36,244 nucleotides of DNA from Nostoc sp. GT001. Its GTDB lineage: Bacteria; Cyanobacteriota; Cyanobacteriia; Cyanobacteriales; Nostocaceae. This document shows positions 1,951-29,756 of the stretch, piece after piece (position 1 is the first letter of the stretch; every line of letters begins with the position of its first letter). The DNA lies in the NCBI RefSeq assembly GCF_030382115.1, contig NZ_JAUDRJ010000003.1:336257-372500 (forward strand), given 5' to 3'. The position numbers were made by a program, and so were the translations under genes. The notes beneath the pieces are model-generated. The model ran no database searches. It had not been told where the DNA came from and saw only the letters and a program-made list of their open reading frames with translations.

Positions 1951-1980
1951 TATTTGACAAAATTTCTTTCAACAATAATT

Positions 1981-2001
1981 CTCTCTGCGTTCTCTGTGGT
2001 T
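1981..2001 (+). repeat. CTCTGCG-type intergenic repeat in the hypF-hypC gap
   Basis: The gap contains CTCTCTGCGTTCTCTGTGG, a short degenerate run of the CTCTGCG/CTCTGTG motif. Longer versions lie between hypD and hypE and after hypB. Runs of this kind are common between genes in Nostoc-type genomes; a function is not established. Confidence 0.55.
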
Positions 2002-2024
2002 CATTTATCTTAAAAAATAAAAAA

Positions 2025-2285
2025 ATGTGCTTAGGAATCCCCGGACAAATTATAGAAATAACCAACGTTGACCACAAATTAGCCATAGTTAACATTGGTG
2101 GTGTTAAGCGCGAAGTAAATATTGCTTGTATCGTAGATGAACAACATCCCCCCGAAGCTTGTATTGGGGATTGGGTATTAGTACATGTTGGCTTTGCCAT
2201 GAATCGAATTAACGAACAAGAAGCAGCAGAGACATTACAACTATTCCAAGAATTAGCAGCAGCACAAGCAGGGATTGGTACTTAA
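2025..2285 (+). CDS. hypC: Hydrogenase maturation chaperone HypC/HupF family
   Basis: Small chaperone (86 residues) that, with HypD, carries the Fe(CN)2CO moiety and delivers it to the hydrogenase large-subunit precursor. I place the start at the ATG at 2025 because the protein then begins MCLGIPGQ; the cysteine after the initiator methionine is the essential iron-binding residue of the family. An upstream in-frame start at 1944 would add 27 residues encoded by the repeat-bearing spacer and is rejected. The gene lies between hypF (74 nt gap) and hypD (52 nt gap) on the same strand. Confidence 0.95.
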   Translation: MCLGIPGQIIEITNVDHKLAIVNIGGVKREVNIACIVDEQHPPEACIGDWVLVHVGFAMNRINEQEAAETLQLFQELAAAQAGIGT

Positions 2286-2337
2286 TTAATACTTAACTAA
2301 GCCATATTGACATAAAACCTATTATTTCCCAATCCTT

Positions 2338-3516
2338 ATGAAATATGTTGACGAATTCCGCGAACCGGAAAAAGCAGAAGCCTTATGCCGCGAAATCGCC
2401 AAATTATGCAATCGGCTAGAAAAACCTATCAAAATCATGGAAGTATGTGGTGGACATACACACTCCATATTTAAATACGGTATCGAAGAAATATTACCCC
2501 AAACCATCGAACTAATTCATGGCCCTGGTTGTCCAGTATGCGTTATGCCAAAAGGGAGATTAGATGATGCGATCGCAATCTCTCAAAATCATAACGTCAT
2601 TTTTGCCACCTTTGGCGACGCCATGCGAGTTCCCGGTTCCCAAACCACTTTACTGCAAGCTAGGGCACAAGGTGCAGACATCCGTATGGTGTACTCTCCC
2701 CTAGATAGCCTACAAATTGCCAGAGATAATCCTGACAAAGAAGTAGTCTTCTTCGCATTAGGCTTTGAAACCACAGCCCCCAGCACCGCCTTCACTATTC
2801 TGCAAGCAGCAGCCGAAAAAATTCATAACTTTAGTATGTTTAGCAATCACGTCCTCGTGATTCCCGCCCTCAAAGCACTACTAGATAATCCCGATTTACA
2901 ACTAGATGGATTTGTTGGGCCTAGCCATGTCAGCATGGTAATTGGCAGTGACCCATACCAATTTATTTCCCAACAATATAATAAGCCGATAGTCGTCTCA
3001 GGATTTGAACCCTTAGATATTCTGCAATCAATTTGGATGCTATTGCAGCAGTTAGTAGAAAATCGTTGCGAAGTCGAAAATCAATATAACCGAATTGTAG
3101 AAAAAACTGGGAACACAGTAGCCCTACAAGCCATAAATAAAGTTTTCGCCGTCCGAGATAGTTTTGATTGGCGTGGCTTAGGTGATATACCCTATTCAGG
3201 ATTACAAATCAAACCTGAATATGCTCAATTTGATGCCGAACTGAAATTTACCATTCCTAACCTCAAAGTAGCCGACCATAAAGCTTGTAAATGTGGAGAA
3301 ATTCTCAAAGGAGTCTTAAAACCTTGGGAATGTAAAGTATTCGGTACAGCTTGCACACCAGAAACACCAATCGGTACTTGCATGGTATCTTCCGAAGGTG
3401 CTTGTGCAGCCTATTACAAATACGGGCGACTCTCCACAATTGCCAAAAGAACAATCGCCCAAAAACCAAAAATAACTCAAGAACCTCTCCCCGCCTGCGG
3501 TTTCTCCTCAGAATAA
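2338..3516 (+). CDS. hypD: Hydrogenase formation protein HypD
   Basis: The 392-residue HypD is the iron-sulfur scaffold on which the Fe(CN)2CO unit is assembled together with HypC and HypE. Diagnostic motifs are present: CGGHTHS near residue 37, HGPGCPVCV near residue 61, GFETTAPS near residue 141, and the cysteine-rich C-terminus (CKCGE, WECKVFGTAC, GTCMVSSEGAC) that binds the [4Fe-4S] cluster. Length is normal for the family. The start MKYVDEF fits the usual N-terminus. It is followed after 57 nt by hypE; that gap is filled by a CTCTGCG-type repeat. Confidence 0.97.
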   Translation: MKYVDEFREPEKAEALCREIAKLCNRLEKPIKIMEVCGGHTHSIFKYGIEEILPQTIELIHGPGCPVCVMPKGRLDDAIAISQNHNVIFATFGDAMRVPGSQTTLLQARAQGADIRMVYSPLDSLQIARDNPDKEVVFFALGFETTAPSTAFTILQAAAEKIHNFSMFSNHVLVIPALKALLDNPDLQLDGFVGPSHVSMVIGSDPYQFISQQYNKPIVVSGFEPLDILQSIWMLLQQLVENRCEVENQYNRIVEKTGNTVALQAINKVFAVRDSFDWRGLGDIPYSGLQIKPEYAQFDAELKFTIPNLKVADHKACKCGEILKGVLKPWECKVFGTACTPETPIGTCMVSSEGACAAYYKYGRLSTIAKRTIAQKPKITQEPLPACGFSSE

Positions 3517-3518
3517 TA

Positions 3519-3559
3519 CTCTGCGTACCTCTGCGCTTCCCTCTGTGTTCCTTTGCGTT
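3519..3559 (+). repeat. CTCTGCG-type repeat in the hypD-hypE gap
   Basis: About 40 bp made of imperfect copies of CTCTGCGTAC, CTCTGCGCTTC, CTCTGTGTTC and CTTTGCGTT. It fills nearly the whole gap between two co-directional genes that should be co-transcribed. Confidence 0.7.
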
Positions 3560-3573
3560 AAAAAAATTTTAAT

Positions 3574-4674
3574 ATGAATATTCCCTCCCAAAACTCAATA
3601 ACAAATCCCCTATTCCAAAAAATAGAAAAAGTCCGCCGCCAAACTAAAATCCAAGACACTCATATAACTCTCGCACATGGCAGCGGTGGTAAAGCCATGC
3701 GCGATTTAATCGATGATATCTTTGTCAACAATTTTGATAATCCAATTCTCTCCCAACTAGAAGACCAAGCTAGCTTCAACCTAACCCCTCTCCTCCAACA
3801 AGGAGACAGACTCGCATTTACAACAGATTCATACGTTGTAGACCCGTTATTTTTCCCCGGTAGTGATATAGGAAAATTAGCGATAAACGGTACAGTTAAT
3901 GATTTAGCTGTAAGCGGTGCTAAACCTTTATATCTAACTTGTAGCGTAATTTTAGAAGAAGGATTACCTGTCGAAACCTTACGCCGTGTCGCAAACAGTA
4001 TGAAAGCAGCCGCAGAAAAAGCTGGTATTCAAATTGTCACTGGTGACACAAAAGTTGTACATCGTGGTGCTGCTGATAAACTCTTTATTAATACTGCTGG
4101 TATTGGTGTCATCCCGCGAGGAGTTAACATTTCCGCCCAAAATATTAAACCTGGAGATGCAATAATAATTAATGGTGAAATAGGCAATCATGGGACAGCA
4201 ATTTTAATTGCCCGTGGAGAATTAGCCTTAGACACTAATATTGAAAGTGATTGTCAGCCGTTGCATAATTTAGTAGAAAATATTCTGCGTGTATGTCCCC
4301 AAATTCATGCTATGCGAGATGCTACACGCGGTGGTTTAGCTACAGTCTTAAATGAATTCGCCCTTACTTCCAATGTGGGAATTCGTCTCTTTGAAGAATC
4401 TATTCCAGTGCGTGAAGAAGTCAACGGAGTTTGTGAAATTCTCGGTTTAGACCCATTGTATTTAGCTAATGAAGGGAAGTTAGTTGTAGTGGTTCCAAAA
4501 GAGAATGCTGACAACGTTTTATCAGCTATGAAATTACACCCAGCAGGTAAAGATGCTTGTATTATTGGCGAAGTTATTCCTTCACCCCCAGGTATCGTAT
4601 TGTTAAAAACAGTTTTTGGTGCTGAAAGGATTGTTGATATGTTGGTAGGCGACCAATTACCACGAATTTGTTAA
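3574..4674 (+). CDS. hypE: Carbamoyl-dehydratase HypE
   Basis: HypE (366 residues) accepts the carbamoyl group from HypF on its C-terminal cysteine and dehydrates it with ATP to a thiocyanate, the donor of the cyanide ligands. The sequence belongs to the PurM/AIR-synthase-like fold: LAHGSGGKAM near residue 33, TDSYVVDPLFFPG near residue 88, GTVNDLAVSGA near residue 107, TGDTKVV near residue 155, and RDATRGGLATVLNE near residue 248. The chain ends LPRIC, the canonical carboxyl-terminal cysteine. The segment before residue 28 is somewhat longer than in many homologues, so a later start is possible, but none is clearly better. Confidence 0.96.
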   Translation: MNIPSQNSITNPLFQKIEKVRRQTKIQDTHITLAHGSGGKAMRDLIDDIFVNNFDNPILSQLEDQASFNLTPLLQQGDRLAFTTDSYVVDPLFFPGSDIGKLAINGTVNDLAVSGAKPLYLTCSVILEEGLPVETLRRVANSMKAAAEKAGIQIVTGDTKVVHRGAADKLFINTAGIGVIPRGVNISAQNIKPGDAIIINGEIGNHGTAILIARGELALDTNIESDCQPLHNLVENILRVCPQIHAMRDATRGGLATVLNEFALTSNVGIRLFEESIPVREEVNGVCEILGLDPLYLANEGKLVVVVPKENADNVLSAMKLHPAGKDACIIGEVIPSPPGIVLLKTVFGAERIVDMLVGDQLPRIC

Positions 4675-4693
4675 TCTTCAATATATTTATAGT

Positions 4694-5035
4694 ATGCACG
4701 AATTTGGAATTACGCAAAATATTCTGGCAATTGTGACTGAACACGCCAAAGGTGCAAAAGTGCAGCGAGTTTTATTAGAAATCGGTAAACTTTCAGCCAT
4801 TATGCCCGATGCTATCCGATTTTGTTTTGATATTTGCACTCAAGGCACTATTTTAGAAGGGGCGACATTAGAAATTTTAGAAATTCCCGGCTTAGGGCGA
4901 TGTCGCCAATGTGGTGCAGAAGTTTATTTAGATAAACCTTATGGAATTTGTAATTGCGGTAGCGTGCAATTAGATTTAATTACTGGTGAAGAACTGAAAA
5001 TTAAAGAAATAGAAATAGAGGAATTATGTGTGTAA
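4694..5035 (+). CDS. hypA: Nickel metallochaperone HypA
   Basis: HypA (113 residues) works with HypB to insert nickel into the hydrogenase large subunit. The N-terminus MHEFGIT supplies the conserved Met-His-Glu nickel ligands. The structural zinc site is CRQC (near residue 74) plus a second pair written CNCG (near residue 92), which is CxC here rather than the CxxC found in E. coli HypA. It begins 19 nt after hypE and its last 10 nt overlap hypB, indicating translational coupling. Confidence 0.95.
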   Translation: MHEFGITQNILAIVTEHAKGAKVQRVLLEIGKLSAIMPDAIRFCFDICTQGTILEGATLEILEIPGLGRCRQCGAEVYLDKPYGICNCGSVQLDLITGEELKIKEIEIEELCV

Positions 5036-5841
5036 CCTGTGGTTGTTCTGATGATAGCGAAATAAAAATTACAAATTTAGAAACAGATAAGGCGGAACAT
5101 AATCATACTCACACTTTACCAGATGGAACTGTCATCACTCACTCCCACAGTCATGACACTCATATAGAAGCACCTCAAATTCATGCAAAAATACACAATA
5201 CAACGATATCTTTAGAACAAGACCTATTAGCAAAAAATAACCTGCTAGCTGCCCAAAACCGTGGATGGTTTAAAGGTCGAAATATTCTCGCCTTAAATTT
5301 AATGAGTTCTCCCGGTGCAGGTAAAACAACTCTCTTAACGCGAACCATTAATGATTTAAAGCATCAATTATCTATCAGTGTCATTGAAGGCGACCAAGAA
5401 ACTGCTAACGATGCCAAAAAAATTAAAGAAACAGGTTCTAAAGTCATCCAAATCAACACCGGAACGGGCTGTCATTTAGATGCATCAATGATAGACAGAG
5501 GTTTACAACAACTGAATCCGCCACTAAATTCAGTTGTGATGATTGAAAATGTCGGAAATTTGGTTTGTCCAGCCTTATTTGATTTAGGAGAACAGGCAAA
5601 AGTGGTGATTCTCTCAGTCACGGAGGGAGAAGATAAGCCGCTAAAATATCCGCATATATTCCGTGCTAGTGATGTAATGATTCTCACGAAAATTGATTTG
5701 CTACCTTACCTGCAATTTGATGTTCAAAAGTGCATAGAATATGCTAGAGAAGTAAATCCCAAAATTCAGATTTTTCAGGTTTCTGCAACTACTGGTGCTG
5801 GGTTAGAGAATTGGTATGCGTGGCTATCTGCATCATTATAG
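5026..5841 (+). CDS. hypB: Hydrogenase nickel incorporation GTPase HypB
   Basis: HypB (271 residues) is the SIMIBI-class GTPase that drives nickel delivery to the hydrogenase precursor. The N-terminus MCVTCGC is the high-affinity metal motif; it is followed by a histidine-rich stretch (about residues 25-55, HNHTHT and HSHSHDTH) likely to bind or store nickel. The P-loop SSPGAGKTTLL is at about residue 90, with downstream GTPase elements including NTGTGCHLD and ILTKIDLLPY (NKxD-like). The start overlaps the end of hypA and has GAGG 4-8 nt upstream. It is the last gene of the visible cluster. Confidence 0.97.
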   Translation: MCVTCGCSDDSEIKITNLETDKAEHNHTHTLPDGTVITHSHSHDTHIEAPQIHAKIHNTTISLEQDLLAKNNLLAAQNRGWFKGRNILALNLMSSPGAGKTTLLTRTINDLKHQLSISVIEGDQETANDAKKIKETGSKVIQINTGTGCHLDASMIDRGLQQLNPPLNSVVMIENVGNLVCPALFDLGEQAKVVILSVTEGEDKPLKYPHIFRASDVMILTKIDLLPYLQFDVQKCIEYAREVNPKIQIFQVSATTGAGLENWYAWLSASL

Positions 5842-16664: not shown

Positions 16665-18095
16665 TTATGTAGCAAGGGTAGGAGAGGATAGAGTATTTTG
16701 CTGCTCTGGAGAAATTGGGACAATTTCAAGACCAAGAGCATGAGCTTTGTTCCTGAGATTTTTGAGAATCAGTTCCTGATATTTTTGCTCATAGTAGTCC
16801 ATACCAGGGTCGGTATATTGCCCAGCAGTCGCCCACATTTGGTAAAACAAGCGTGCCAATTTATGGGCAGTAGCGGTGATGGCTTTTGGAGCACCCAAGC
16901 GCGATCGTAAACGCCTGTAAAAAGCACCCAAAGCAGAACGGCTTTGAGTTAGAGAAAAAGCAGCCATCCGAAAAGCCGAAGCTGCACGATTAACAACTCG
17001 ACGAGTCTGAGAACTTTTGACTTTACCACCAGTAATTTTTTGACCAGGGCATAAACCCAACCATGAGGTAAAGTGCTTAACAGTGGGAAATCGTTTGGGG
17101 TCTAATCCAACTTCTGAGAAAATGGTTTGCACAGTCAAAACATCAAGGCCATCAATCAGGGTAAAATCTACGCCAGAAATGTGATAAAGATATTTACGTA
17201 AATCAAAATTGGGATTATTGCCTACGGGCTTTTTTCTGCGTTTTCGCTTGCTGGGAGGTGGTTCATCCTGTACTTTAATTTCAAACGTATTTAAACATTT
17301 TTCAATTTCTTTATCTATGGCAGCTATCTGTTGTTGATAAACCTCATAAAGGGTTAACTCTTGATTGAGGACAAACAAATGTTCTGGACGATAGTCTCCA
17401 GTTAGGGCTTTAGCAATGTCTGTTTTACTACTTTTAATTCTAGGGTCTTTGAGGGCAGCTAACTTTTGTGGGTCTCGTTCACTAGCGACAATTGCCTTAA
17501 TAATTGTCATTCCAGTTAAACCACTAATATCGCTAATCACTTGATGTAAATGTAGATTCATTTGAATCAGTGCTTTTTGCATTCTTTGCAAATGAGTTCC
17601 AGCACTTTTAATCAAGCATTCTCTTTGGCGAATATAACTACGTAAGATACAAACTTGATCTTCTGGGCGGAAAGAGCCAGACAATAGCCCATAGGTGTGT
17701 AACTGTTGTAACCATTGACAGTCTTTGACATCTGTTTTACGTCCTGGCACTGTTTTCAAATGGTGAGCATTTACCAGTTTGACCTCAAACCCTCTGGTTT
17801 CCAAAATTTGGAACACCGGAATCCAATATACTCCTGTTGCCTCCATTGCTACAGATGTTACGCCACATTGACTCAACCAATCAGCCATTGCCATCAAATC
17901 TGGGGTAAAACATCCAAATCGCCGCACATTTTTCTCGTCTCTCAGAGGCGGAACACACACCCAATGTTCTGCACTACCCAAGTCAATTCCTGCCGCATTC
18001 TCATTTATTTGCGCTAAATGTGAAGCATTAGATGACTCTAGCCTTTGTTCTTGACCACTAAATGGATTTTGATCTTGGTTTATTGGCAATTTCAT
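16665..18095 (-). CDS. IS110-family transposase
   Basis: A 476-residue DEDD transposase of the IS110 family. The RuvC-like N-terminal domain has AGIDLGSAEHWV (about residue 35), the acidic VAMEATGVYW, and GRKTDVKDCQWL. The C-terminal Transposase_20 domain has ISGVDFTLIDGLDVLTVQ, FTSWLGLCPG and the serine-bearing KVKSSQTRRVVNRAA. It is longer than many family members because of a basic, proline-rich linker (PPPSKRKRRKKP) between the domains. The frame is intact, so the element may be active. It ends 41 nt from the histidine-kinase stop, leaving little room for its downstream end; the larger noncoding flank is on the start side. Confidence 0.92.
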   Translation of the reverse strand: MKLPINQDQNPFSGQEQRLESSNASHLAQINENAAGIDLGSAEHWVCVPPLRDEKNVRRFGCFTPDLMAMADWLSQCGVTSVAMEATGVYWIPVFQILETRGFEVKLVNAHHLKTVPGRKTDVKDCQWLQQLHTYGLLSGSFRPEDQVCILRSYIRQRECLIKSAGTHLQRMQKALIQMNLHLHQVISDISGLTGMTIIKAIVASERDPQKLAALKDPRIKSSKTDIAKALTGDYRPEHLFVLNQELTLYEVYQQQIAAIDKEIEKCLNTFEIKVQDEPPPSKRKRRKKPVGNNPNFDLRKYLYHISGVDFTLIDGLDVLTVQTIFSEVGLDPKRFPTVKHFTSWLGLCPGQKITGGKVKSSQTRRVVNRAASAFRMAAFSLTQSRSALGAFYRRLRSRLGAPKAITATAHKLARLFYQMWATAGQYTDPGMDYYEQKYQELILKNLRNKAHALGLEIVPISPEQQNTLSSPTLAT

Positions 18096-19159: not shown

Positions 19160-20659
19160 ATGTCACAGTCATGCAATTTTGATAGCAAAGCACGCACATC
19201 TAACTTAGTTTCGTTTAAGTTAGAAGACATTCGACTTCAAGTGGAGAATAAGGAAGTTGTTGATGTTACAGTTAACTTGGATTATATCGATGGACTGAAT
19301 CCAAGTGAATTAAAAAATGTTGTACCCATTGCTAATAATATCAAAGATTACTTGACTAATTATCCAAATAATCCTAATAACTTATTTGAAGTTATCAATC
19401 GCAATCTCACCAATAAATTGCTAAATGATGAGAATCTAGGGCTTTCTAAAATATTGGACTCATTGAGTGTTAATTTGGATGTGTCACCAAAAGTTATTCC
19501 TTTCCCATTTAATAATACAAATACTCGTACCTCAGATGGAGACATTAACGATATTGTCTCGTTTCAGTTAAAAGATATTCAGCTTGATGTTACAAATAGA
19601 GAGAATGCGGATGTCACCATTACCCTTGATTATATTAATGGAGTAGACCCTAGTGACTTTAAAGAAGTCGGAGTGATAGCTGATCAAGTCAAAGATTATT
19701 TAACTAATTATCCAAATAATCCCAATGACTTGTTTGAAGTCATCAATCGCAATCTCACTCAAGAATTGCTAAGTGATGACAATCTAGGGCTTTCCTCCGT
19801 GCTAGACTTTTTAAGTGTGAATCTTGATGTCGCACCAGCCATTATTCCTTTCCCATTTAATAATACAAATACTCGTACCCCAAATGGCGACATAAACGAT
19901 ATTGTTTCATTTCGTTTAGAAGACGTTACATCTCCAATTGATGGTGGTATAGTTACCGATGTCACTGTTAATTTAGATTATGTTGATGGAATCGACCCAA
20001 GCGCCTTAAAAGATGTCATACCCATCGGTAATTACATTAAAGATTTCTTGGCAAATTATCCAGTAGAAGCAGGCTTGTATGAAGTCCTCAATCGCGACCT
20101 TACCCAAGGGTTACTAAATGATAGCACTATAGGACTATCTGGGGTGTTGGACTCATTAAGCGTTAATCTGGATGTGTCACCAAAAATTATTCCTTTCCAA
20201 TTTGACACCACAATTACCCGCACAGCCAATGGTGATATTAACGATATTGTCTCATTTCAACTAGAAGATATTTTACTTCCGATTGATGGTGCTAGTGTTG
20301 CTGATGTCGCCGTCAACTTGGATTATATTGATGGAATTGACCCAAGCGCATTCAAAGATGTCATCCCCCTTGGTAATTTCATTAAAGATTATCTCACAAA
20401 TTATTCTCATCCCAATGACTCTTTTGAAGTCGTAAACAACAATTTAGGCAATGCATTGCTAACTAATTCTAATCTAGGACTTTCCTCAGTGTTAGACTCA
20501 CTAACTGTTAAGTTAGGTGCATCACCAGGTGTTATTCCTTTTCAATTTAACAATACTGTCACCCTTACCCCAATTGGCACTACAATGTTTGGAGGAAGCG
20601 AATTTACTCGATTTTGTGATATCGACGGTATTAGTGTAATAAACCGGGTTTTGCTATAA
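19160..20659 (+). CDS. Unrecognised protein of four ~116-residue tandem repeats
   Basis: The 499-residue protein consists of a 14-residue lead, four direct repeats starting near residues 15, 131, 247 and 362 (spacing 116, 116, 115), and a 22-residue tail. Each repeat follows the plan VSFxLEDI, then VxVNLDYIDGxxPSxxKxV, IKDYLTNYPNNP, FEVxNRNLTxxLL, LGLSxVLDSLSVNL and IPFxFNNTxTRT, ending GDINDI at the next unit. There is no signal peptide or membrane segment; Asp/Asn-rich loops (NLDYIDG, GDIND) might bind calcium. Repeats 1 and 2 share long identical DNA stretches, so duplication is recent. GGAGA 9 nt before the ATG supports the start. I cannot assign a family; a cell-surface or secreted role via a non-classical route is speculative. 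The tail (FGGSEFTRFCDIDGIS) is unlike the repeats. Confidence 0.8.
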   Translation: MSQSCNFDSKARTSNLVSFKLEDIRLQVENKEVVDVTVNLDYIDGLNPSELKNVVPIANNIKDYLTNYPNNPNNLFEVINRNLTNKLLNDENLGLSKILDSLSVNLDVSPKVIPFPFNNTNTRTSDGDINDIVSFQLKDIQLDVTNRENADVTITLDYINGVDPSDFKEVGVIADQVKDYLTNYPNNPNDLFEVINRNLTQELLSDDNLGLSSVLDFLSVNLDVAPAIIPFPFNNTNTRTPNGDINDIVSFRLEDVTSPIDGGIVTDVTVNLDYVDGIDPSALKDVIPIGNYIKDFLANYPVEAGLYEVLNRDLTQGLLNDSTIGLSGVLDSLSVNLDVSPKIIPFQFDTTITRTANGDINDIVSFQLEDILLPIDGASVADVAVNLDYIDGIDPSAFKDVIPLGNFIKDYLTNYSHPNDSFEVVNNNLGNALLTNSNLGLSSVLDSLTVKLGASPGVIPFQFNNTVTLTPIGTTMFGGSEFTRFCDIDGISVINRVLL

Positions 20660-21338: not shown

Positions 21339-22220
21339 TTAGTTAATCTCCTTTCGCAATAATTCTGGAATCTGAGAAGGGCGTTCGGCTACTGTAACTT
21401 CTGCTTCTTTTAAAGCGGCTAATTTACTTTGGGCTGTGCCAAAGTTAGGATCGCGTCCAATAACCGTTGCTAAAGTCCCAGTTTGACGCCAACTTTTTCC
21501 TGGCGGTGCAAGTCTACCTGCAATGTAGGCAATTACTGGTTTATCAATTGCCTCAGCAATGTACCGCGCTGCTGCTTCTTCACTACCACCACCGGGTTGA
21601 CCGACTAAAACGATCGCTTGTGTGGTTTCATCCTCATCGAGAATTTGCAGCCATTGCAAAAACGAGGAACCAACGATCGCATCACTACCAATACTGACAC
21701 TAATCGACTGCCCTAAACCTGCTTTTGTTAATTCGTAAGCAATTTCGTAGGTGAGGGTGCTGCTACGACTAACGATTCCCACTGTTCCAGGGGTATAAAA
21801 TTCGCTGGGTTGAGTCCCTAAGAGAATTTTTCCCGGTACGATGATCCCCGGACTATTTGGCCCGATTACCAAAGTTTCACAAGCTTCGGCTTTGCGGAGT
21901 AATTGCACCATATCCAAAGGCGGCACACCAGCAGTAATAATAATAATCTGGCGAATCTTAGATGCGATCGCTTCTAATGCCGCATCCAATACGTCGTAAG
22001 GATCTACACAAATAATTGTTGTGTCAATTGCCCCAAATTGTTCTATTACCTCCTCTACTAAATCAAATACTGGCAGTCCATGCAGTTCCTGTCCGCCGCA
22101 TCCAGGATTGACACCAGCTACTAAATTTGTGCCATAAGCTTTCATTTGAGCAACATGAGTGCTTGATATAAATTCACAAAAGCCTTGAATTAAGACTTTA
22201 CTTTCTGGCGTTAGGTTCAT
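21339..22220 (-). CDS. Succinyl-CoA synthetase alpha-subunit-like protein lacking the catalytic histidine
   Basis: The 293-residue protein aligns throughout with E. coli SucD: VLIQGF, AYGTNLVAGVNPG, GLPVFD, the GPNxPG turn, VGIVSRSSTLTYEIAYELT, and AGRLAPPGKS. Yet the residues that define the reaction differ. The segment GKRMGHAGAI of E. coli reads GKSWRQTGTL, so the phospho-histidine H246 is glutamine; GEIGG reads GQPGG, replacing E208 by glutamine; and the CoA-site GPNCPG reads GPNSPG. The Rossmann CoA-binding part looks intact. The enzyme therefore probably cannot form phosphohistidine and may bind acyl-CoA for another purpose or regulate. Its partner gene lies upstream, with a 272-nt gap that contains only a CCCAG/CTGGG hairpin. 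Confidence 0.85.
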   Translation of the reverse strand: MNLTPESKVLIQGFCEFISSTHVAQMKAYGTNLVAGVNPGCGGQELHGLPVFDLVEEVIEQFGAIDTTIICVDPYDVLDAALEAIASKIRQIIIITAGVPPLDMVQLLRKAEACETLVIGPNSPGIIVPGKILLGTQPSEFYTPGTVGIVSRSSTLTYEIAYELTKAGLGQSISVSIGSDAIVGSSFLQWLQILDEDETTQAIVLVGQPGGGSEEAAARYIAEAIDKPVIAYIAGRLAPPGKSWRQTGTLATVIGRDPNFGTAQSKLAALKEAEVTVAERPSQIPELLRKEIN

Positions 22221-22492
22221 AAAAAATTACCGTAAATTTGGCAACCCAGCGCCTTCAACCACTGGGCATATTGATTCAATTTTTACTGAAATTCCAAAAA
22301 CTAGTTTTGAAGCCGAGTGTTCCAAAAGTCAGAAAACGCGCCTCTAGATAGGAATATCCAGTTTGAATGTACTATATAATTTAGTTCCAAAAAGCAAAGC
22401 TTTACTTGATTTGAGCATCAAATTCAACAATTTATACCTGAAGGTAAAAACTAATAATTTTTGATTTTTGAATTGGAACAAAATGACATTCA

Positions 22493-23719
22493 CTATCTTT
22501 TATTAGCCGTTGGTTTAGCAAGGAGAACTGCTGCTGCAACTGCCTCATCTAAATTTTCTACCACGACGAGCGCATCGGTGTGGGTTTTTAGTGTTGTCAA
22601 ATATTTTCTCGCAGTGTTAAATTCAGAACCCGCAAGACGGACAACTAAGGATGGAAAATTAAGCTGTCGCCGAACTTTACTACCATTAGAACGTACAACC
22701 TGTGATTGAAGTTCGCTGTTGTCTTGCTGCACAACTCTAGCTATAACTTCAGCCACTTCCTCAGTTTGCGGAATGCTACCCAGAAAGTTAATTAGTATTA
22801 CTTGAATGCTTTTATCAGCCTCCAGCATTTTCAAACCTGTTTCTAGGCGATCGCGGAAGGTAGTTGGTGTAGTATCTGTAAGGAAAGCATGACGTAGATT
22901 CAAACAAACACCTGGGTTGCCACCAGCATTCGCAACTAAATCTAAAGTTGCCATCACTGAACCAGTACCATTACCTAAAATACCGATTTTTCCATGCATT
23001 TGCACACCATCCCAGTCACCCAAAATACCGTTAATTTCAGTAGTGGTATGACGACTGATAATTTTTGCTGCCATCTCGGCCAGATCGGGATGACGCTTGA
23101 TCGCCCGTTCGTTGACCCTGACTTTACCATTAAGGGCCATAACTTGACTAGTAGTACTGACTGCCAAGGGATTAATTTCGACTAAATCCAGGTCTTTTTG
23201 GACAAATAAGTGGTACATCTTCTCCACAACGCTGCTTACCGACTGCATCAGCGTTCCTTGCAAACCCATTTTCAAAGCCAATCGTCGCGCATAAAATGGC
23301 GAGAATTCCTGTTCCACAACAACATGGTGCATTCTTTCTCCAGCCGATTCCCAATCGATGTCTGCTTCTTTGCAACCTAAAAGTACTAGTCGGCAGACAG
23401 CTGTATCTAAAACTACTGCTAGATAAAATTCTTGGTTGGCGTCGTATCTAGATTCTGCCAGTACAACTTCCGGCAATTCGCCCCATATTGGTAAACTAAA
23501 GATATTTTGAGCAGCTGCTATCGCATCGATAGTTGTTTGGGCAAACCTGACTCCGCCCGCTTTTGCCCGTTCTGCTCCGTGGACTTGAGATTTCAGTACA
23601 ATTGGAAAGCGAATTTTTAACCGTTTCAAATCTGTAGGATGGTCAATTCGTTGGGAAGGCAATACCGGAATGCCTATCTTTGCAAACCATTCTTTAACTT
23701 GGTACTCTAATAAATCCAT
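22493..23719 (-). CDS. Succinyl-CoA synthetase beta-subunit-like (ATP-grasp) protein, divergent
   Basis: About 408 residues from the ATG at 23719, chosen because MDLLEYQVKEWF matches the SucC N-terminus and AAGGTG lies 5 nt upstream; a GTG at 23740 would add seven residues. The ATP-grasp half has IVLKSQVHGAERAKAGGVRF and DLDLVEINPLAV. However, the Mg ligand aspartate of E. coli (LDGK) is asparagine here (LNGK), the GGGAT loop of the CoA-ligase half is replaced by LRHAFLTDTT, and NIFGGI reads NFLGSI. The changes parallel those of the alpha-like partner and suggest that both subunits drifted together to a different role, perhaps in the same complex. Nostocales can close the TCA cycle by other routes, so a canonical SucCD need not be this pair. 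Confidence 0.82.
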   Translation of the reverse strand: MDLLEYQVKEWFAKIGIPVLPSQRIDHPTDLKRLKIRFPIVLKSQVHGAERAKAGGVRFAQTTIDAIAAAQNIFSLPIWGELPEVVLAESRYDANQEFYLAVVLDTAVCRLVLLGCKEADIDWESAGERMHHVVVEQEFSPFYARRLALKMGLQGTLMQSVSSVVEKMYHLFVQKDLDLVEINPLAVSTTSQVMALNGKVRVNERAIKRHPDLAEMAAKIISRHTTTEINGILGDWDGVQMHGKIGILGNGTGSVMATLDLVANAGGNPGVCLNLRHAFLTDTTPTTFRDRLETGLKMLEADKSIQVILINFLGSIPQTEEVAEVIARVVQQDNSELQSQVVRSNGSKVRRQLNFPSLVVRLAGSEFNTARKYLTTLKTHTDALVVVENLDEAVAAAVLLAKPTANKR

Positions 23720-24368
23720 TGATACACCTTGTATTGACACTTTCCAAGATTTTGGTTATTCCTGTCTTGATATTTTGCAGCACCTTTATTGCAGAATTAA
23801 CCTTTTTGCAGCTATAAAAACTTATTTTTCACGGATCAATTTTATCGAATTCAGCAAATGAAGCATATTAATTTTGATAGTCAACTTGTTTGTGCCGGAG
23901 CCACAACACATAATTAATCTCCTCAGCAAGTTTCCCAGCATAGAAGATAACTAGCTTTTTTGTCAAAACCCTCTGACATAGCATCGTTTTCTTAACCTTT
24001 AGATAATTTGGTAAAAATTGCTCTGCAACTAGAATTTCGCAAAGCAGTAGCTTTTGTGAATTTAATTATCGCAAAGTAATGCAGTGAAAATACTCAAGCC
24101 TTCTATTATTCCCATTTTTTATTTGTAATTTATATCTGAAGACAGATTATTTAATTTTGCATCTAGTGCTGTAAAAATGTATTGTTACGAACAATATTTA
24201 CTTTTTTAATTTTTGGTGAAAAGTCAGAATTTGTGTTAGAAAGTTGGTCGTTCAGATTCTCAGGCTGTGGTTGGTTAAATTGTGCATTTGCATTCAACAA
24301 ACCTAAAAAGTTCATTTCATCCCCTTAAAGATAATCAAAACTATATAGAAGTTCAGCGGGAAAGCTCT
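23720..24368. promoter_or_regulatory. Divergent intergenic region between the sucC-like and membrane-protein genes
   Basis: About 650 bp, AT-rich, separating divergently transcribed genes, so it should carry both promoters. I see no clear -35/-10 pair, no HIP1 site and no repeat. A frame from a GTG at 24282 runs into the downstream gene and may be part of it. Confidence 0.4.
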
Positions 24369-26120
24369 ATGAAAGTAGCAGTCCAGCAGGAAGATTTACA
24401 GCTTTTAGCCAAAACTTTGCAAGAACAATTACTTGTAGAAGTCTCAACGGCTGAAGTCTTCGAGGTTAAGTGCGTCGTCAATAAAGGCGAGTTAATGATT
24501 TTAACGCAACACGCGTCAGATGTAATCGTTGACGCTCAACTAATTTTTGCAGTCATTGAGGAGGTACTTCAGTCTCTAGCACCCCACAAAGAGCAGCGGG
24601 TGCAATGTTTCCTCAGAGTTTTTGGCGAACAACTCCCTTATACTAAATGTTTCTTGGCATTGAAGCCGACGGGGGGATGGGTAACAGAGGGAGATGAGGA
24701 AGTACAAGGAGATGAGGAGGTAATATCCTCCTCATCATCTCTGACATATTCTCCATTAATCAATGAGAGCGAAGAAGAAGAAGAACTGTTTGACCCGTTT
24801 GCAGATGTGCCGAATTTGTCGGCTTCAAAGCCAGGATTTCAGGTCAAACCTATCCTACTGGGTGCTGTGTTGGTGGGAATTATAGTTTTAGGCGGTGGTG
24901 CTTACTTATTGACTCGCCCTTGCGTGATGTCTGAGTGTAAGGAAATACAAAATGCCAAGCAATTAAAAACAAAATCTCCACAACTGATGCGCCGCGCCAA
25001 GTCTGAAAAAGAATTAATCGCTGTACAACAGCAACTTGCAGCAGCCAGCACAGACCTGAATGTAATTCCTAGTTGGTCGCCTCGCTACCAGCTGTCACAG
25101 GAACTAAAAGCAAGTTTGTCTGGACGAGCAGAAAAAATCAATCAGGTGGTCAAAGCTTTGCAAATGGCATCTTTGGCGACACAAAAAGTTCAAACTCCAG
25201 CATCTAGCTTAGAAGAATTACAAACTAGGCAACACTTATGGCGACAGGCTATAGCGCCACTAGAAAGTATAAGTTCCAGTAGTGAACTTTATGGGCTGGT
25301 GCAGGGTAAATTACTGAATTATCGTGTTCGTTTGCACGCTGTAAATCAACAGATATTTATTGAGGAAAAATGGCTGAAAAAACTAACGGCGGCAAAAGGT
25401 GTAGCCGTTGCAGCCCAGAAGCGGGAAACTGCTGCTAAATCCTTAAATGACTGGCGAAAGGCGCAGTCTACTTGGCTGGTGGTAATTAATGCCTTGAATA
25501 CCATTCCCCGAAATAGCGTTGGATACCAAGAAGCCCAAAAGCTGTTGGTAGATTATAAACCTAAGTTAGTATTAGTACGCGATCGCGCTACTAAAGAACA
25601 ATTAGCTGTTAAAACCTACCAACAGGCCTTTAGCACTGCCAAGCAAGCCAAAGTTTATGAACAACAAAACCAATGGCAAGCAGCGGCGATATATTGGGAA
25701 CAGGCTTTGCAAACTGCTAAAAAAGTTCCCCAAGATAGCTTGTACTACACTCAGGCTCAGTCTCTCATCGAACCCTATTCATCTGCGCTCAAACAAGCAC
25801 AAGAAAAACTACAAGTTGTTAGTAGTTTGCAACAAACCCGCACTGACTTGGATAAGACCTGTACTAATGGAATTCGGATTTGCACCTTTAGTATGGACAA
25901 TGCAGAAATTATTGTCCGACTAACCCCTGAGTATGACCAAATCAGGCAAAATAACTTGGCTAATCCTTATTCTAAGAATTCGGATACTGCTGTTGATGTT
26001 ACCAATCACTTGCAAATCTTACGCGAAGCCCTAGCCGTAATTGGTGAAAATGCCAATCTATCCCTTTTTCTTTATGATTCCCAAGGTCAGGTAATTTATA
26101 CGCGGACTTTAGGCGGGTAA
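24369..26120 (+). CDS. Single-pass membrane protein with long helical periplasmic part, unknown function
   Basis: From the ATG at 24369 the protein has 583 residues. Layout: an N-terminal cytoplasmic domain of about 100 residues (MKVAVQQEDLQLLAKTL ... RVQCFLRVFGEQLPYTKCF), an acidic low-complexity linker (GDEEVQGDEEV, SEEEEELFDPF), a membrane helix (about residues 160-180, ILLGAVLVGIIVLGGGAYLL), then a long helical region with repeated W-containing segments (WRQAIAPLE, WRKAQSTWLVVINAL, NQWQAAAIYWEQAL) like irregular TPR or coiled coil, and a compact end. The GTG at 24282 would add 29 residues without family character. I do not recognise a family. It stands alone. Confidence 0.75.
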   Translation: MKVAVQQEDLQLLAKTLQEQLLVEVSTAEVFEVKCVVNKGELMILTQHASDVIVDAQLIFAVIEEVLQSLAPHKEQRVQCFLRVFGEQLPYTKCFLALKPTGGWVTEGDEEVQGDEEVISSSSSLTYSPLINESEEEEELFDPFADVPNLSASKPGFQVKPILLGAVLVGIIVLGGGAYLLTRPCVMSECKEIQNAKQLKTKSPQLMRRAKSEKELIAVQQQLAAASTDLNVIPSWSPRYQLSQELKASLSGRAEKINQVVKALQMASLATQKVQTPASSLEELQTRQHLWRQAIAPLESISSSSELYGLVQGKLLNYRVRLHAVNQQIFIEEKWLKKLTAAKGVAVAAQKRETAAKSLNDWRKAQSTWLVVINALNTIPRNSVGYQEAQKLLVDYKPKLVLVRDRATKEQLAVKTYQQAFSTAKQAKVYEQQNQWQAAAIYWEQALQTAKKVPQDSLYYTQAQSLIEPYSSALKQAQEKLQVVSSLQQTRTDLDKTCTNGIRICTFSMDNAEIIVRLTPEYDQIRQNNLANPYSKNSDTAVDVTNHLQILREALAVIGENANLSLFLYDSQGQVIYTRTLGG

Positions 26121-26662: not shown

Positions 26663-27970
26663 ATGAAAAATGCCAGACTTGAAGAGTTTCGTCAAGTAGC
26701 TTACAAATATTTAGGTAGAGCTAAAGATGCGACGTTTGAATTAACAGATGCCATATTGCTGACTCGCAATGTTTATTCCTTAGCAGATTTATCCTTATCA
26801 CCAGTATTTAGACGCAAGTGGCCAAGCATCTATGAAGCCTTACAAGATAGCAGACCACAAAGACAAAAATTGATGCAGCTATACATCAAACAGATCCCAG
26901 CAGAGGGACGACCATTGTTAGCAGGAGACCATACAAACTGGTCACGCCCAGATGCAGTAACGTTACAAGAGAGAACTTATGAACATAGTGGCACATCCAT
27001 AGCTGGAAATAAACCGATTACCATTGGTCAAGGATATAGCACAATTGCCTGGATACCTGAAAAATCAGGCAGTTGGGCATTACCTTTGAGACATGAGCGG
27101 ATCACAAGTGGGGAAAGTCCAATAGGGAAAGCGGTTTGGCAACTTAAACAGGTGTGTAAATATTTACCTGTTAGACCGATTTCAGTTTGGGATAGTGAAT
27201 ATGGATGCGCCCCTTTTGTCTTAAAAACTGCCAGTATTCCCGCAGATATTCTCGTTCGGTTGCGCTCAAATTTGTGTTTATGGGGTGAACCAGGAGCTTA
27301 TCCAGGGATTGGCCGTCCCAAGAAGCATGGTGATAAATTTAAGCTCAATGAACCAATAACATGGAGTGAAGCCACATCTGTGTTGGAAATGAATGACCCA
27401 AAATTAGGGCGTGTGCGTGTTAGCTTGTGGAAAGATTTACACTTCCGTCAGGCTGCTACACGCCCAATGTTACTCCTGCGGGTTGAACGTCTCGACGCAC
27501 AAGGCAATGAACGAGTATCCAAACCTTTGTGGTTAGCTTGGGTAGGAGAAGAAATCCCACCATTAGAGGAAGTTTGGTGTCTCTACTTGCGTCGCTTTAC
27601 CATTGACCATTGGTATCGCTTTTTAAAGCAACGTCTACATTGGACAGTGCCACAGTTCAGTACTCCAATACATTGTGAAAGATGGAGTGACCTCATGCCT
27701 CTGATGACTTGGGAATTGTGGTTAGCCCGTGATATTGTAACTGACAATCCTTTACCTTGGCAGAAGTCTCAGGGTAATTTGACCCCTGGAAGAGTTGCTC
27801 AAGCTATGGGTGGAGTTTTCGCGGCCATTGGTACTCCCACCTCTGCACCCAAACCTCGTGGAAAGTCCCCTGGTTGGCAACCAGGAAAAAAGCGTCACCG
27901 TAAAAACCGATGTCCGATTGTTAAAAAAACTGTAACACGACCACGCAAAGAACCATCAATTGCAGTTTAA
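26663..27970 (+). CDS. DDE transposase of the insertion sequence (IS4/IS701-like)
   Basis: A 435-residue transposase, intact. Likely catalytic acids are the aspartate in LLAGDHTNWSRPDA (about residue 89), the one in ISVWDSEYG (about residue 178) and a glutamate in the C-terminal helix (MTWELWLARD), the RNase H-fold D-D-E order. Other family marks are TYEHSGTSIAGNKPITIGQG and RRFTIDHWYRFLKQRLHW. The C-terminus is basic (PGKKRHRKNR). I believe this is the group often filed as NF041680, but that was not checked. It lies 314 nt inside the left inverted repeat and 70 nt from the right one. Confidence 0.88.
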   Translation: MKNARLEEFRQVAYKYLGRAKDATFELTDAILLTRNVYSLADLSLSPVFRRKWPSIYEALQDSRPQRQKLMQLYIKQIPAEGRPLLAGDHTNWSRPDAVTLQERTYEHSGTSIAGNKPITIGQGYSTIAWIPEKSGSWALPLRHERITSGESPIGKAVWQLKQVCKYLPVRPISVWDSEYGCAPFVLKTASIPADILVRLRSNLCLWGEPGAYPGIGRPKKHGDKFKLNEPITWSEATSVLEMNDPKLGRVRVSLWKDLHFRQAATRPMLLLRVERLDAQGNERVSKPLWLAWVGEEIPPLEEVWCLYLRRFTIDHWYRFLKQRLHWTVPQFSTPIHCERWSDLMPLMTWELWLARDIVTDNPLPWQKSQGNLTPGRVAQAMGGVFAAIGTPTSAPKPRGKSPGWQPGKKRHRKNRCPIVKKTVTRPRKEPSIAV

Positions 27971-28056: not shown

Positions 28057-28708
28057 CACCTATTCCACTTCAAATAAGCAATTGGCATTTTTGCAGCACA
28101 TATACAGGTCACTCAAACCGGAAGGACGAGCTGCGGTGGTTTTGCCGGATAACGTACTGTTTGAGGATGGACAAGGAAAATCAATTCGGGCTGATTTGAT
28201 GAATAAGTGCAATTTGCATACCATTCTTCGGCTACCCACAGGTATATTTTATGCCCAAGGTGTAAAAACGAATGTCTTATTTTTCCAACGTGGCACAACG
28301 GAGAAAGGTAACACCAAAGTAGTTTGGATCTATGATATGCGAACCAATATGCCCAGTTTTGGTAAGCGATTTCCTTTAAATCGTGAGCATTTCGCTGAGT
28401 TTGAGCAATGCTATGGAGATGACCCTAATGGCAATCATCCTCGTGTAGATTTAGGAGAGAATGAACGTTTTCGCTGCTTTACGCGGGATTATATTGAAAA
28501 ACGTAATGAAAACCTAGATATTTCCTGGCTACGGGATGAGAGTTTGCAATCAGGTGATAATTTACCTGAGCCAGAGGTAATTGCTGCTGAGATTATGGAG
28601 AAACTGCGAATTGCAACCAAGGAGATGGAAGCTTTAATGATATTGCTGGAAGGGGAAGAAGCAGCAGAGGCTGTTAGTTCTTCGGTGGGTATGCCAACTT
28701 TAGAATAG
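28057..28708 (+). pseudogene. hsdM: Type I restriction-modification methyltransferase (HsdM), C-terminal remnant
   Basis: The frame is open right from the insertion-sequence end. TSNKQLAFLQHIYRSLKP, GRAAVVLPDNVLFEDGQGK and ILRLPTGIFYAQGVKTNVLF are the part of an HsdM-type N6-adenine methylase that follows the NPPF motif, and the C-terminal helical tail is complete. The SAM-binding motif I, the catalytic NPPF motif IV and the whole N-terminal half are missing, and they are not found to the left of the insertion sequence. The remnant cannot methylate DNA. A broken hsdS follows about 470 nt downstream. Confidence 0.85.
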
Positions 28709-28746: not shown

Positions 28747-29001
28747 ATGACCATCGAGCAAGCGATTTTAGAAAAAGTGCGGGTATTATCACCAGAGAAG
28801 CAACAAGAGGTACTGGCCTTTATCGACCTATTGCAAGCTGACGAGTGGAAAAAGTTATACAAGGGAAGATTTAAGGAACTACAGCAAGAAATTCAAGTTG
28901 GAATAGAAGCAGCTGACCGGGGTGAACTAGTGGATGCTGAAGAGGTATTTCAACGGTTACGCGCGAAACTGCAACAAAAACGCGCTCAGGCTGGTCAATG
29001 A
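28747..29001 (+). CDS. Type II antitoxin, ParD/DUF2281-like
   Basis: An 84-residue antitoxin-like protein. The N-terminus MTIEQAILEKVRVLSPEKQQ with EVLAFIDLLQ is the DUF2281-type motif, and the C-terminal half (EIQVGIEAADRGELVDAEEV, FQRLRAKL) resembles ParD tails that embrace ParE. GGGAG precedes the ATG. The stop overlaps the start of the ParE-like frame by the ATGA arrangement typical of toxin-antitoxin pairs. It is intact, although its toxin partner is truncated. Confidence 0.75.
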   Translation: MTIEQAILEKVRVLSPEKQQEVLAFIDLLQADEWKKLYKGRFKELQQEIQVGIEAADRGELVDAEEVFQRLRAKLQQKRAQAGQ

Positions 29002-29756
29002 GCAACATTTGTAGGTTTACAGTTACAGCAAGTCGGGATATTGAGGCTATTATCGATTACATTGCTGACAATAGTAGTTTTAATGCTGCGGAAAGCCTTC
29101 TCAGCAAAATTAACAGCAAATGTGAAAGGTTAGCAAAATTTCCTGGTATGGGACGTAGGCGAGATGAATTAGCTCTGAACGATCGCACCCAAAAAGCGAA
29201 GGAAGCACTAGACAGTATACCTCAGTTGTGCGATCGCTTCCGCCAATCCGTCCTCGCCCCTGCCTTTCGAGGTGATTTAACAGCAGATTGGCGTGAACAA
29301 AACCCAGACATTGAAACTGCTTCAATTCTGTTGGAGAGAATGAAAAATCTGAAACTAAGGGATAAAATTCGACGAGGAGTTCCGCAGGAAATTGCAAAGC
29401 CAGAAGCTATTGCAAATTGGGAAATTCCTGAAACTTGGACTTATGCTTCTGCTGCTGAACTTCCCAGAATCGGAGCGTTTTTAGATTTGAAAGATGGCAA
29501 TCATGGAAGTAATCATCCAAAAACTGTGGATTTTACTCCTATAGGACTTCCTTTTATTACAGCAGCACAAGTCAAAGAATTCAAAATTGATTACGACAGC
29601 GCATATAAAATTTCTGGTGAGCCACTCAAAAAACTTAGAGTAGGTTTCTCAAAACCTAGCGATGTTATCTTTACTCACAAGGGAAGTGCTGGAAGAGTTG
29701 CAGTAACAGATAGAGAATGTATTCTCACACCCTTGAGGGGGGACAAAATACCCTGA
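28998..29756 (+). pseudogene. In-frame chimera: ParE-type toxin N-terminus fused to HsdS specificity-subunit fragment
   Basis: Residues 1-59 are a ParE/RelE-family toxin start (TASRDIEAIIDYIADNS, then LAKFPGMGRRRDELA). At about nt 29175 the sequence passes without a frame break into the central conserved region of a type I specificity subunit (TQKAKEALDSIPQLCDRFRQ, AFRGDLTADWREQNPD), followed by a second target-recognition domain (WEIPETWTYASA, GLPFITAAQVKEF, VIFTHKGSAGRVAV). The HsdS part is cut at ILTP by the end of the IS4-like element, whose bases encode the last residues before the stop. The toxin lacks its C-terminal catalytic half, and HsdS lacks its N-terminal recognition domain and its end. 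A deletion between a toxin-antitoxin locus and hsdS explains it. Confidence 0.85.

What the first reader, a model, noticed from the sequence alone, without database searches (positions are those of the whole stretch)
21339..23719. SucC/SucD-like pair without the catalytic residues of succinyl-CoA synthetase
Seen: both proteins align from end to end with SucD and SucC, but the alpha-like subunit has Gln at the phosphohistidine position (E. coli H246; GKSWRQTG for GKRMGHAG), Gln for E208 (GQPGG for GEIGG) and Ser for C123 in the CoA-site turn. The beta-like subunit has LNGK for LDGK (a Mg ligand) and has lost the GGGAT and NIFGGI loops. Known: H246 carries the phosphoryl group in all ATP/GTP-dependent members. 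Inference: the pair kept the fold and gene pairing but cannot run the classic reaction; it may be an acyl-CoA sensor, a regulator or an enzyme with another mechanism.
Basis: partly seen in the sequence, partly recalled or inferred. Interest (0 to 1): 0.8.

Follow-up and report, generated by a model that had tools for sequence, protein, structure and literature searches.

The report
Succinyl-CoA synthetase pair without phosphohistidine
A cyanobacterial gene pair labelled as a citric-acid-cycle enzyme lacks the histidine that this enzyme needs, yet nearly all sampled members of its family keep both genes intact, so the pair has probably been turned into something other than that enzyme.

Summary
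In this Nostoc-like genome a SucC/SucD pair has Gln at alpha-H246 and alpha-E208, Asn at the beta-D213 Mg ligand, and altered CoA and acid loops. No other sucCD was found in the genome. It is not error or decay: among close relatives Q208 is in 213 of 213 distinct alphas, Q246 in 203 of 213, N213 in 87 of 87 betas; alpha is kept in 182 of 185 good family genomes; median dN/dS is 0.085 (alpha) and 0.12 (beta). Most other cyanobacterial relatives keep H246 (80 of 128 rows), so the loss is derived. A second clade (Synechocystis, Crocosphaera, Picosynechococcus) has Asp or Asn there. Joint alpha+beta data reject one clade for both (p 0.0013); alpha alone does not (p 0.83). Ser123 and the GGGAT loss are also seen in H246-bearing relatives, so they are not diagnostic. 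ATP-site residues stay invariant, which fits a nucleotide-binding pseudoenzyme better than an acyl-CoA sensor. Beta lies beside one divergently transcribed gene in 16 of 16 family genomes, 0 of 52 H246-bearing ones.

The parts
21339..22220 (-). SucD-like alpha subunit, 293 aa, without phosphohistidine
   Evidence: AF2 model pLDDT 89.6, Foldseek to 3ufx_A TMq 0.93
22493..23719 (-). SucC-like beta subunit, 408 aa (ATP-grasp), upstream of alpha on the same strand
   Evidence: AF2 model poor, pLDDT 50.6
21483..21485 (-). codon of Gln246 (E. coli alpha-His246, phosphohistidine)
21597..21599 (-). codon of Gln208 (E. coli alpha-Glu208)
21852..21854 (-). codon of Ser123 (E. coli alpha-Cys123); not diagnostic
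22164..22178 (-). residues 15-19 CEFIS in place of the E. coli CoA loop TGSQG
23129..23131 (-). codon of Asn at the E. coli beta-Asp213 (Mg ligand) position
23570..23572 (-). codon of Glu at the E. coli beta-Gly53 (ATP loop) position
22850..22894 (-). RHAFLTDTTPTTFRD stretch in place of the GGGAT loop
22775..22792 (-). INFLGS in place of NIFGGI
24282..26120 (+). divergently transcribed 612-aa protein with one apparent membrane-spanning stretch and helical repeats; linked partner candidate
   Evidence: found in 70 of 80 loci; linked to the pair in 16 of 16 family genomes with a match and 0 of 52 H246-bearing ones; Pfam and NCBIfam only sub-threshold hits

Best explanation
The pair is a SucC/SucD-derived heterodimer that has given up phosphoryl-shuttle chemistry and is kept as a pseudoenzyme. 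Shown: the catalytic His and its Glu partner are replaced by Gln, the Mg ligand Asp by Asn, and these states are fixed or nearly so under purifying selection. Inferred: the beta ATP-grasp site still binds an adenine nucleotide, because K46, R54, E99, E107 and E197 are invariant, and the E->Q and D->N swaps keep shape while removing charge, as in laboratory trap mutants that hold a ligand without turning it over. The bound state would then be read by a partner through conformation or assembly; the divergently encoded 612-aa protein is the first candidate.
For: Q208 213 of 213, position 246 Q203/E4/P3/N2/K1 (entropy percentile 61), N213 87 of 87, K46/R54/E99/E107/E197 87 of 87. Median dN/dS alpha 0.085 (78 of 80 pairs), beta 0.12 (63 of 76 pairs). 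Alpha in 182 of 185 and beta in 181 of 185 good family genomes. D213->N was seen only together with a His-less alpha: all 17 N213 rows are of the Nostocaceae type, against 97 D and 1 G of 115. Linked neighbour gene in 16 of 16. Related precedent: inactive, His-less NDP-forming acyl-CoA synthetase domains of GNAT acetyltransferases act as ligand sensors (PMC8556138, passages).
Against: No binding, expression or partner data. Gln246 is still 95% conserved, so the position is not free. ATP-loop glycines 53 and 55 are changed, which may weaken nucleotide binding. Beta could not be modelled well. dN/dS is about twice that of H246-bearing pairs (0.098 against 0.054 in alpha; the latter from 16 of 19 hand-picked pairs). 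The published sucCD knock-out phenotype in Synechococcus 7002 was read as enzyme activity (PMC5160925, passages).
Confidence: 0.5

Rival explanations
1. It is still an acid-CoA or acid-activating ligase with another mechanism: the ATP-grasp site makes an acyl phosphate directly, as other ATP-grasp ligases do, without a histidine shuttle.
For: Most ATP-site residues are invariant (87 of 87); alpha Y158, R152 and S153 are invariant (213 of 213).
Against: Mg ligand D213 is Asn in 87 of 87; the CoA loop and acid loops are altered; in SCS the ATP and CoA sites are far apart and the His loop carries the phosphoryl group (recalled).
Confidence: 0.2
2. It is an acyl-CoA sensor like the His-less acyl-CoA synthetase domain of Pat acetyltransferases.
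For: Precedent with acetyl-CoA KD 290 nM (PMC8556138, passages); Pfam CoA_binding E 3.9e-19 in alpha.
Against: CoA-loop glycines 18 and 21 and Lys43 are lost; no GNAT fusion here.
Confidence: 0.17
3. A different residue became the phosphoacceptor (Asp246 in the second clade; Thr or Ser next to Gln246 in Nostocaceae; a His one residue earlier in some relatives).
For: Asp246 is the commonest state in the second clade (136 of 316 retrieved proteins have D); 5 of 6 named Picosynechococcus-group rows have His just before it; 12 of 213 Nostocaceae-type alphas have His at 245.
Against: Asn occurs repeatedly at 246 in the second clade; the window has Arg at 245 and no His after residue 47; Thr247 is Ser, Gly or Met in 27 of 213.
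Confidence: 0.08
4. Decay or sequence error.
For: In the second clade some alphas sit on very long branches or are truncated.
Against: dN/dS near 0.1, fixed replacement residues and 98% retention in the window's family.
Confidence: 0.03

Closest known systems
ADP-forming succinyl-CoA synthetase SucCD (E. coli, Thermus, mitochondria)
   Same: Two-gene arrangement, alpha fold (3ufx_A TMq 0.93), ATP-grasp residues K46, R54, E99, E107, E197
   Different: No phosphohistidine, E208Q, D213N, changed CoA, ATP and acid loops; scores 289.1 of 353.2 and 197.1 of 375.55 needed bits on TIGR01019 and TIGR01016
H246-bearing cyanobacterial SucCD-like family
   Same: Closest relatives; already altered CoA loop (E at G18 in 61 of 80) and GGGAT loop
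   Different: Keep H246, mostly E208 (74 of 80) and D213
His-less acyl-CoA synthetase domain of Pat/PatZ/PatA GNAT acetyltransferases
   Same: Same superfamily, catalytic His lost, regulatory role (PMC8556138, passages)
   Different: Single chain fused to GNAT; here a free two-subunit pair
Second His-less clade (Synechocystis PCC 6714, Crocosphaera, Gloeothece, Picosynechococcus PCC 7003)
   Same: Pair kept, E208 lost, some with the same divergent neighbour gene
   Different: Asp or Asn at 246, D213 kept, alpha on long branches

Membership tests
Succinyl-CoA synthetase (SucCD) | Phosphohistidine H246 in alpha | tested here: not met
   Gln in the window; Q203/E4/P3/N2/K1 of 213
Succinyl-CoA synthetase (SucCD) | Glu208 of alpha | tested here: not met
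   Gln, 213 of 213
Succinyl-CoA synthetase (SucCD) | Glu197 of beta | tested here: met
   87 of 87
Succinyl-CoA synthetase (SucCD) | Mg ligands N199 and D213 of beta | tested here: not met
   N199 kept in 79 of 87, D213 is Asn in 87 of 87
Succinyl-CoA synthetase (SucCD) | ATP-binding K46, R54, E99, E107 of beta | tested here: met
   87 of 87 each
Succinyl-CoA synthetase (SucCD) | CoA loop TGxxG of alpha | tested here: not met
   CEFIS in the window; G18 in 19 of 19 outgroup rows
Succinyl-CoA synthetase (SucCD) | Acid-site loops GGGAT and NIFGGI of beta | tested here: not met
   (11 of 11 outgroup betas have both)
Succinyl-CoA synthetase (SucCD) | Curated family cut-offs TIGR01019 and TIGR01016 | tested here: not met
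   289.1 < 353.2; 197.1 < 375.55 bits
Succinyl-CoA synthetase (SucCD) | SCS alpha fold | tested here: met
   only the loop around 241-260 is low confidence
Succinyl-CoA synthetase (SucCD) | SCS beta fold and heterodimer | tested here: inconclusive
   beta model pLDDT 50.6; complex not modelled
Succinyl-CoA synthetase (SucCD) | Succinyl-CoA forming activity | not testable with these tools
   needs an assay
Pat-type GNAT acetyltransferase | GNAT domain fused to the acyl-CoA synthetase domain | tested here: not met
   no GNAT domain in either protein

The most novel reading that the evidence does not exclude
In heterocyst-forming cyanobacteria, and separately in a Synechocystis-type clade, the annotated TCA enzyme SucCD is a natural trap-mutant pseudoenzyme: a nucleotide-gated heterodimer, coupled in Nostocaceae to the divergently encoded membrane-type protein, that reports energy state instead of making succinyl-CoA.
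Probability: 0.22. Interest if true: 0.82.

Novelty: new variant of a known kind. Interest (0 to 1): 0.64.

Why it matters
Cyanobacterial genome annotations and reviews treat this pair as succinyl-CoA synthetase (for example PMC7133116, passages, which says it 'probably catalyses' the reaction). If the pair cannot do so in Nostocaceae and related clades, models of the cyanobacterial TCA cycle and the reading of the sucCD knock-out in Synechococcus 7002 (PMC5160925, passages) need revising. It would also be a rare case of a two-subunit central-metabolism enzyme that loses catalysis in at least two lineages while the gene pair stays under selection. In the open-access literature searched I saw no listed paper that reports this loss.

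Tried and rejected
Acyl-CoA sensor as the first choice: downgraded, because the CoA loop is degraded while ATP-site residues are invariant. C123S and GGGAT loss as evidence: rejected as non-diagnostic. A single loss of H246: the alpha tree left it open (quick tree, parsimony 5 changes, 2 forced by well-supported branches; AU p 0.83 with the one-clade tree 32.8 log units better). The joint alpha+beta tree of 36 chosen rows puts H246-bearing L020 beside the Nostocaceae clade (100/100), gives one loss in 0 of 200 bootstrap trees, and rejects one clade at p 0.0013. Shared linkage to the neighbour gene in both clades would also fit an older common ancestor, so I call two losses likely, not proven. 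A backup canonical sucCD: none found; the one other relative in the genome is a single-chain acyl-CoA ligase-GNAT protein with an intact His motif. DNA pattern search for GQPGG: too many chance hits to use. Beta model: too poor for a fold search, so none was run. A low-confidence alpha loop at 241-260 may only reflect a mobile loop; no H246-bearing control was modelled. Literature searches gave nothing on SCS activity in Nostocaceae. dN/dS of the second clade and of the outgroup (medians about 0.33 and 0.32 in alpha) come mostly from distant pairs and were not used; four near pairs of the second clade gave 0.04-0.10. Rows dropped: alpha L186 and betas L016, L025, L142, L181, L183 as too short, 3 alpha and 1 beta duplicates; L264 and L025 from the joint tree for want of beta; pairs with dS outside 0.15-1.5. 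Fisher's test on co-occurrence ignores relatedness.

Full report
What is there. The window lies in a Nostoc-like genome of 7.9 Mb in 6 contigs (nearest named loci 99% identical, Nostoc). On the minus strand a SucC-like gene (22493-23719) is followed by a SucD-like gene (21339-22220). They match SCS subunits over most of their length but fall below the curated cut-offs (289.1 of 353.2 and 197.1 of 375.55 bits). On alignment with E. coli SucD/SucC (L214) the window has Gln for E208 and H246, Ser for C123, Asn for beta D213, Glu for beta G53, Ala for beta G55. The alpha protein has only two His, at 22 and 47 (read).

The genome has no other pair. Searches with each protein and with TIGR01016 found only the pair and one distant 917-aa frame, which is an acyl-CoA ligase-GNAT fusion with an intact His motif. 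A 2-oxoglutarate dehydrogenase E1 (TIGR00239) was not found in the genome; the control rang in 7 of 14 genomes.

The state is conserved. Among 213 distinct close relatives of alpha (window, loci L004-L019 and L033-L112, proteins P0001-P0120) Q208 is in 213, W244 in 213, and position 246 is Q 203, E 4, P 3, N 2, K 1. Among 87 distinct betas K46, R54, E99, E107, E197 and N213 are in 87, N199 in 79, and G53 is E 82, D 4, G 1. Proline or lysine at 246 cannot act as a phosphohistidine, while Q208 and N213 do not vary at all. Median dN/dS against the window is 0.085 for alpha (78 of 80 pairs) and 0.12 for beta (63 of 76). In the wider set the His-less clade gives 0.098 and 0.145, H246-bearing near pairs 0.054 and 0.074, so constraint is strong but somewhat looser. 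In the family, alpha is in 182 of 185 good genomes and 55 of 56 genera, beta in 181 of 185; both are missing from the same six genomes of 192, and beta from one more.

The loss is derived. In a class-wide sample (291 genomes) alpha was found in 117, beta in 118, both in 116 (E under 1e-20). Of 128 cyanobacterial alpha rows 80 have H246, of which 74 have E208. Only 1 of 291 class genomes passes the SucD cut-off, whereas 18 of 146 in the phylum-wide draw do, all of them from outside the class. So the cyanobacterial family as a whole departed from canonical SCS: E replaces G18 in 61 of 80 H246-bearing rows and the GGG loop is in 1 of 115 betas against 11 of 11 in the outgroup. That one is L167 (G020), the first branch in the alpha tree. 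The histidine went later. L020 (75% identical alpha) has E208, H246 and D213 and stands beside the Nostocaceae clade (100/100 in the joint tree).

A second clade. Synechocystis PCC 6714, Crocosphaera ATCC 51142 and WH 8501, Gloeothece PCC 7424, Rippkaea PCC 8801 and Picosynechococcus PCC 7003 have Asp at 246 and Gln or Arg at 208. Over the 316 retrieved proteins the states are D in 136 and H in 35, the rest mostly Q. In this clade D213 is kept and branches are long. The joint tree rejects one clade for both groups (p 0.0013); alpha alone did not (p 0.83). Other scattered His-less alphas exist (L137, L165, L172, L178, L180, L189, L190).

A link to published work. The sucCD operon was deleted in Synechococcus 7002; the mutant could not be grown under the specified high-CO2 sparging and had about 60% (light) and 40% (dark) of wild-type succinate and malate, read by the authors as succinyl-CoA synthase activity (PMC5160925, passages only). 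I did not see the PCC 7002 sequence. Its congeners have Asp at 246 (P0121, P0122, P0125), but five of six named rows of that group have a His one residue earlier and one has Tyr, so a shifted phosphoacceptor is not excluded there. It is excluded by sequence in the window.

Neighbour gene. A 612-aa protein is encoded divergently upstream of beta (24282-26120). It is present in 70 of 80 fetched Nostocaceae loci, some of which are cut short, and has no family assignment above threshold. A profile of it finds relatives in 185 of 291 class genomes. Among genomes with a listed match the gene lies within 10 kb of the pair in 16 of 16 Nostocaceae, 2 of 6 of the second clade, 0 of 52 H246-bearing and 0 of 5 other His-less genomes (only listed matches were typed in). 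Three more second-clade genomes (G377, G358, G362) have it beside the pair. This association was found after the fact and is limited by shared ancestry.

Structure. The alpha model is confident (pLDDT 89.6) except for residues 241-260, the phosphohistidine loop (block means 53 and 60), and matches SCS alpha chains (3ufx_A, TMq 0.93). The beta model is poor.

Reading. Shown: loss of the phosphoacceptor, its partner and a Mg ligand, fixed under selection, in a pair that is nearly always kept. Inferred: a nucleotide-binding pseudoenzyme. The precedent for His loss with a regulatory role in this superfamily is the acyl-CoA synthetase domain of Pat-type acetyltransferases (PMC8556138, passages). 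Recalled, not from a call: the roles of the numbered E. coli residues and the distance between ATP and CoA sites.

Noticed in passing
G000:C3 about 1262 kb (L002:1-2367 minus): Single-chain NDP-forming acyl-CoA ligase with GNAT-like end and an intact His motif (ASHTG), the only other relative found in the genome.
   Followed up: partly
19160-20659 (+): 499-aa protein made of four repeats of about 116 residues (starts at residues 13, 129, 245, 360 counting from 0); no Pfam or NCBIfam family above cut-off; no match in the 80 Nostocaceae loci.
   Followed up: partly
16665-18095 (-) and 26663-27970 (+): Two transposase-like genes flank the region on either side; neither was found in the 80 related loci. 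Transposase naming is from sequence look, not from a family search.
   Followed up: no
28082-28708 and 28998-29756 (+): Fragments matching type I restriction-modification HsdM and specificity subunits, far below cut-off.
   Followed up: no
52-5841 (+): Run of genes that look like HypF, HypD, HypE and HypB hydrogenase maturation factors (recognised by eye, not searched).
   Followed up: no
L207, L208 (G059, G010): Beta-like genes with lost E197/N199 or D213 in genomes where no alpha was found at E under 1e-20.
   Followed up: no
L123, L132, L140 (G254, G066, G247): Alphas with H246 kept but Lys at 208.
   Followed up: no
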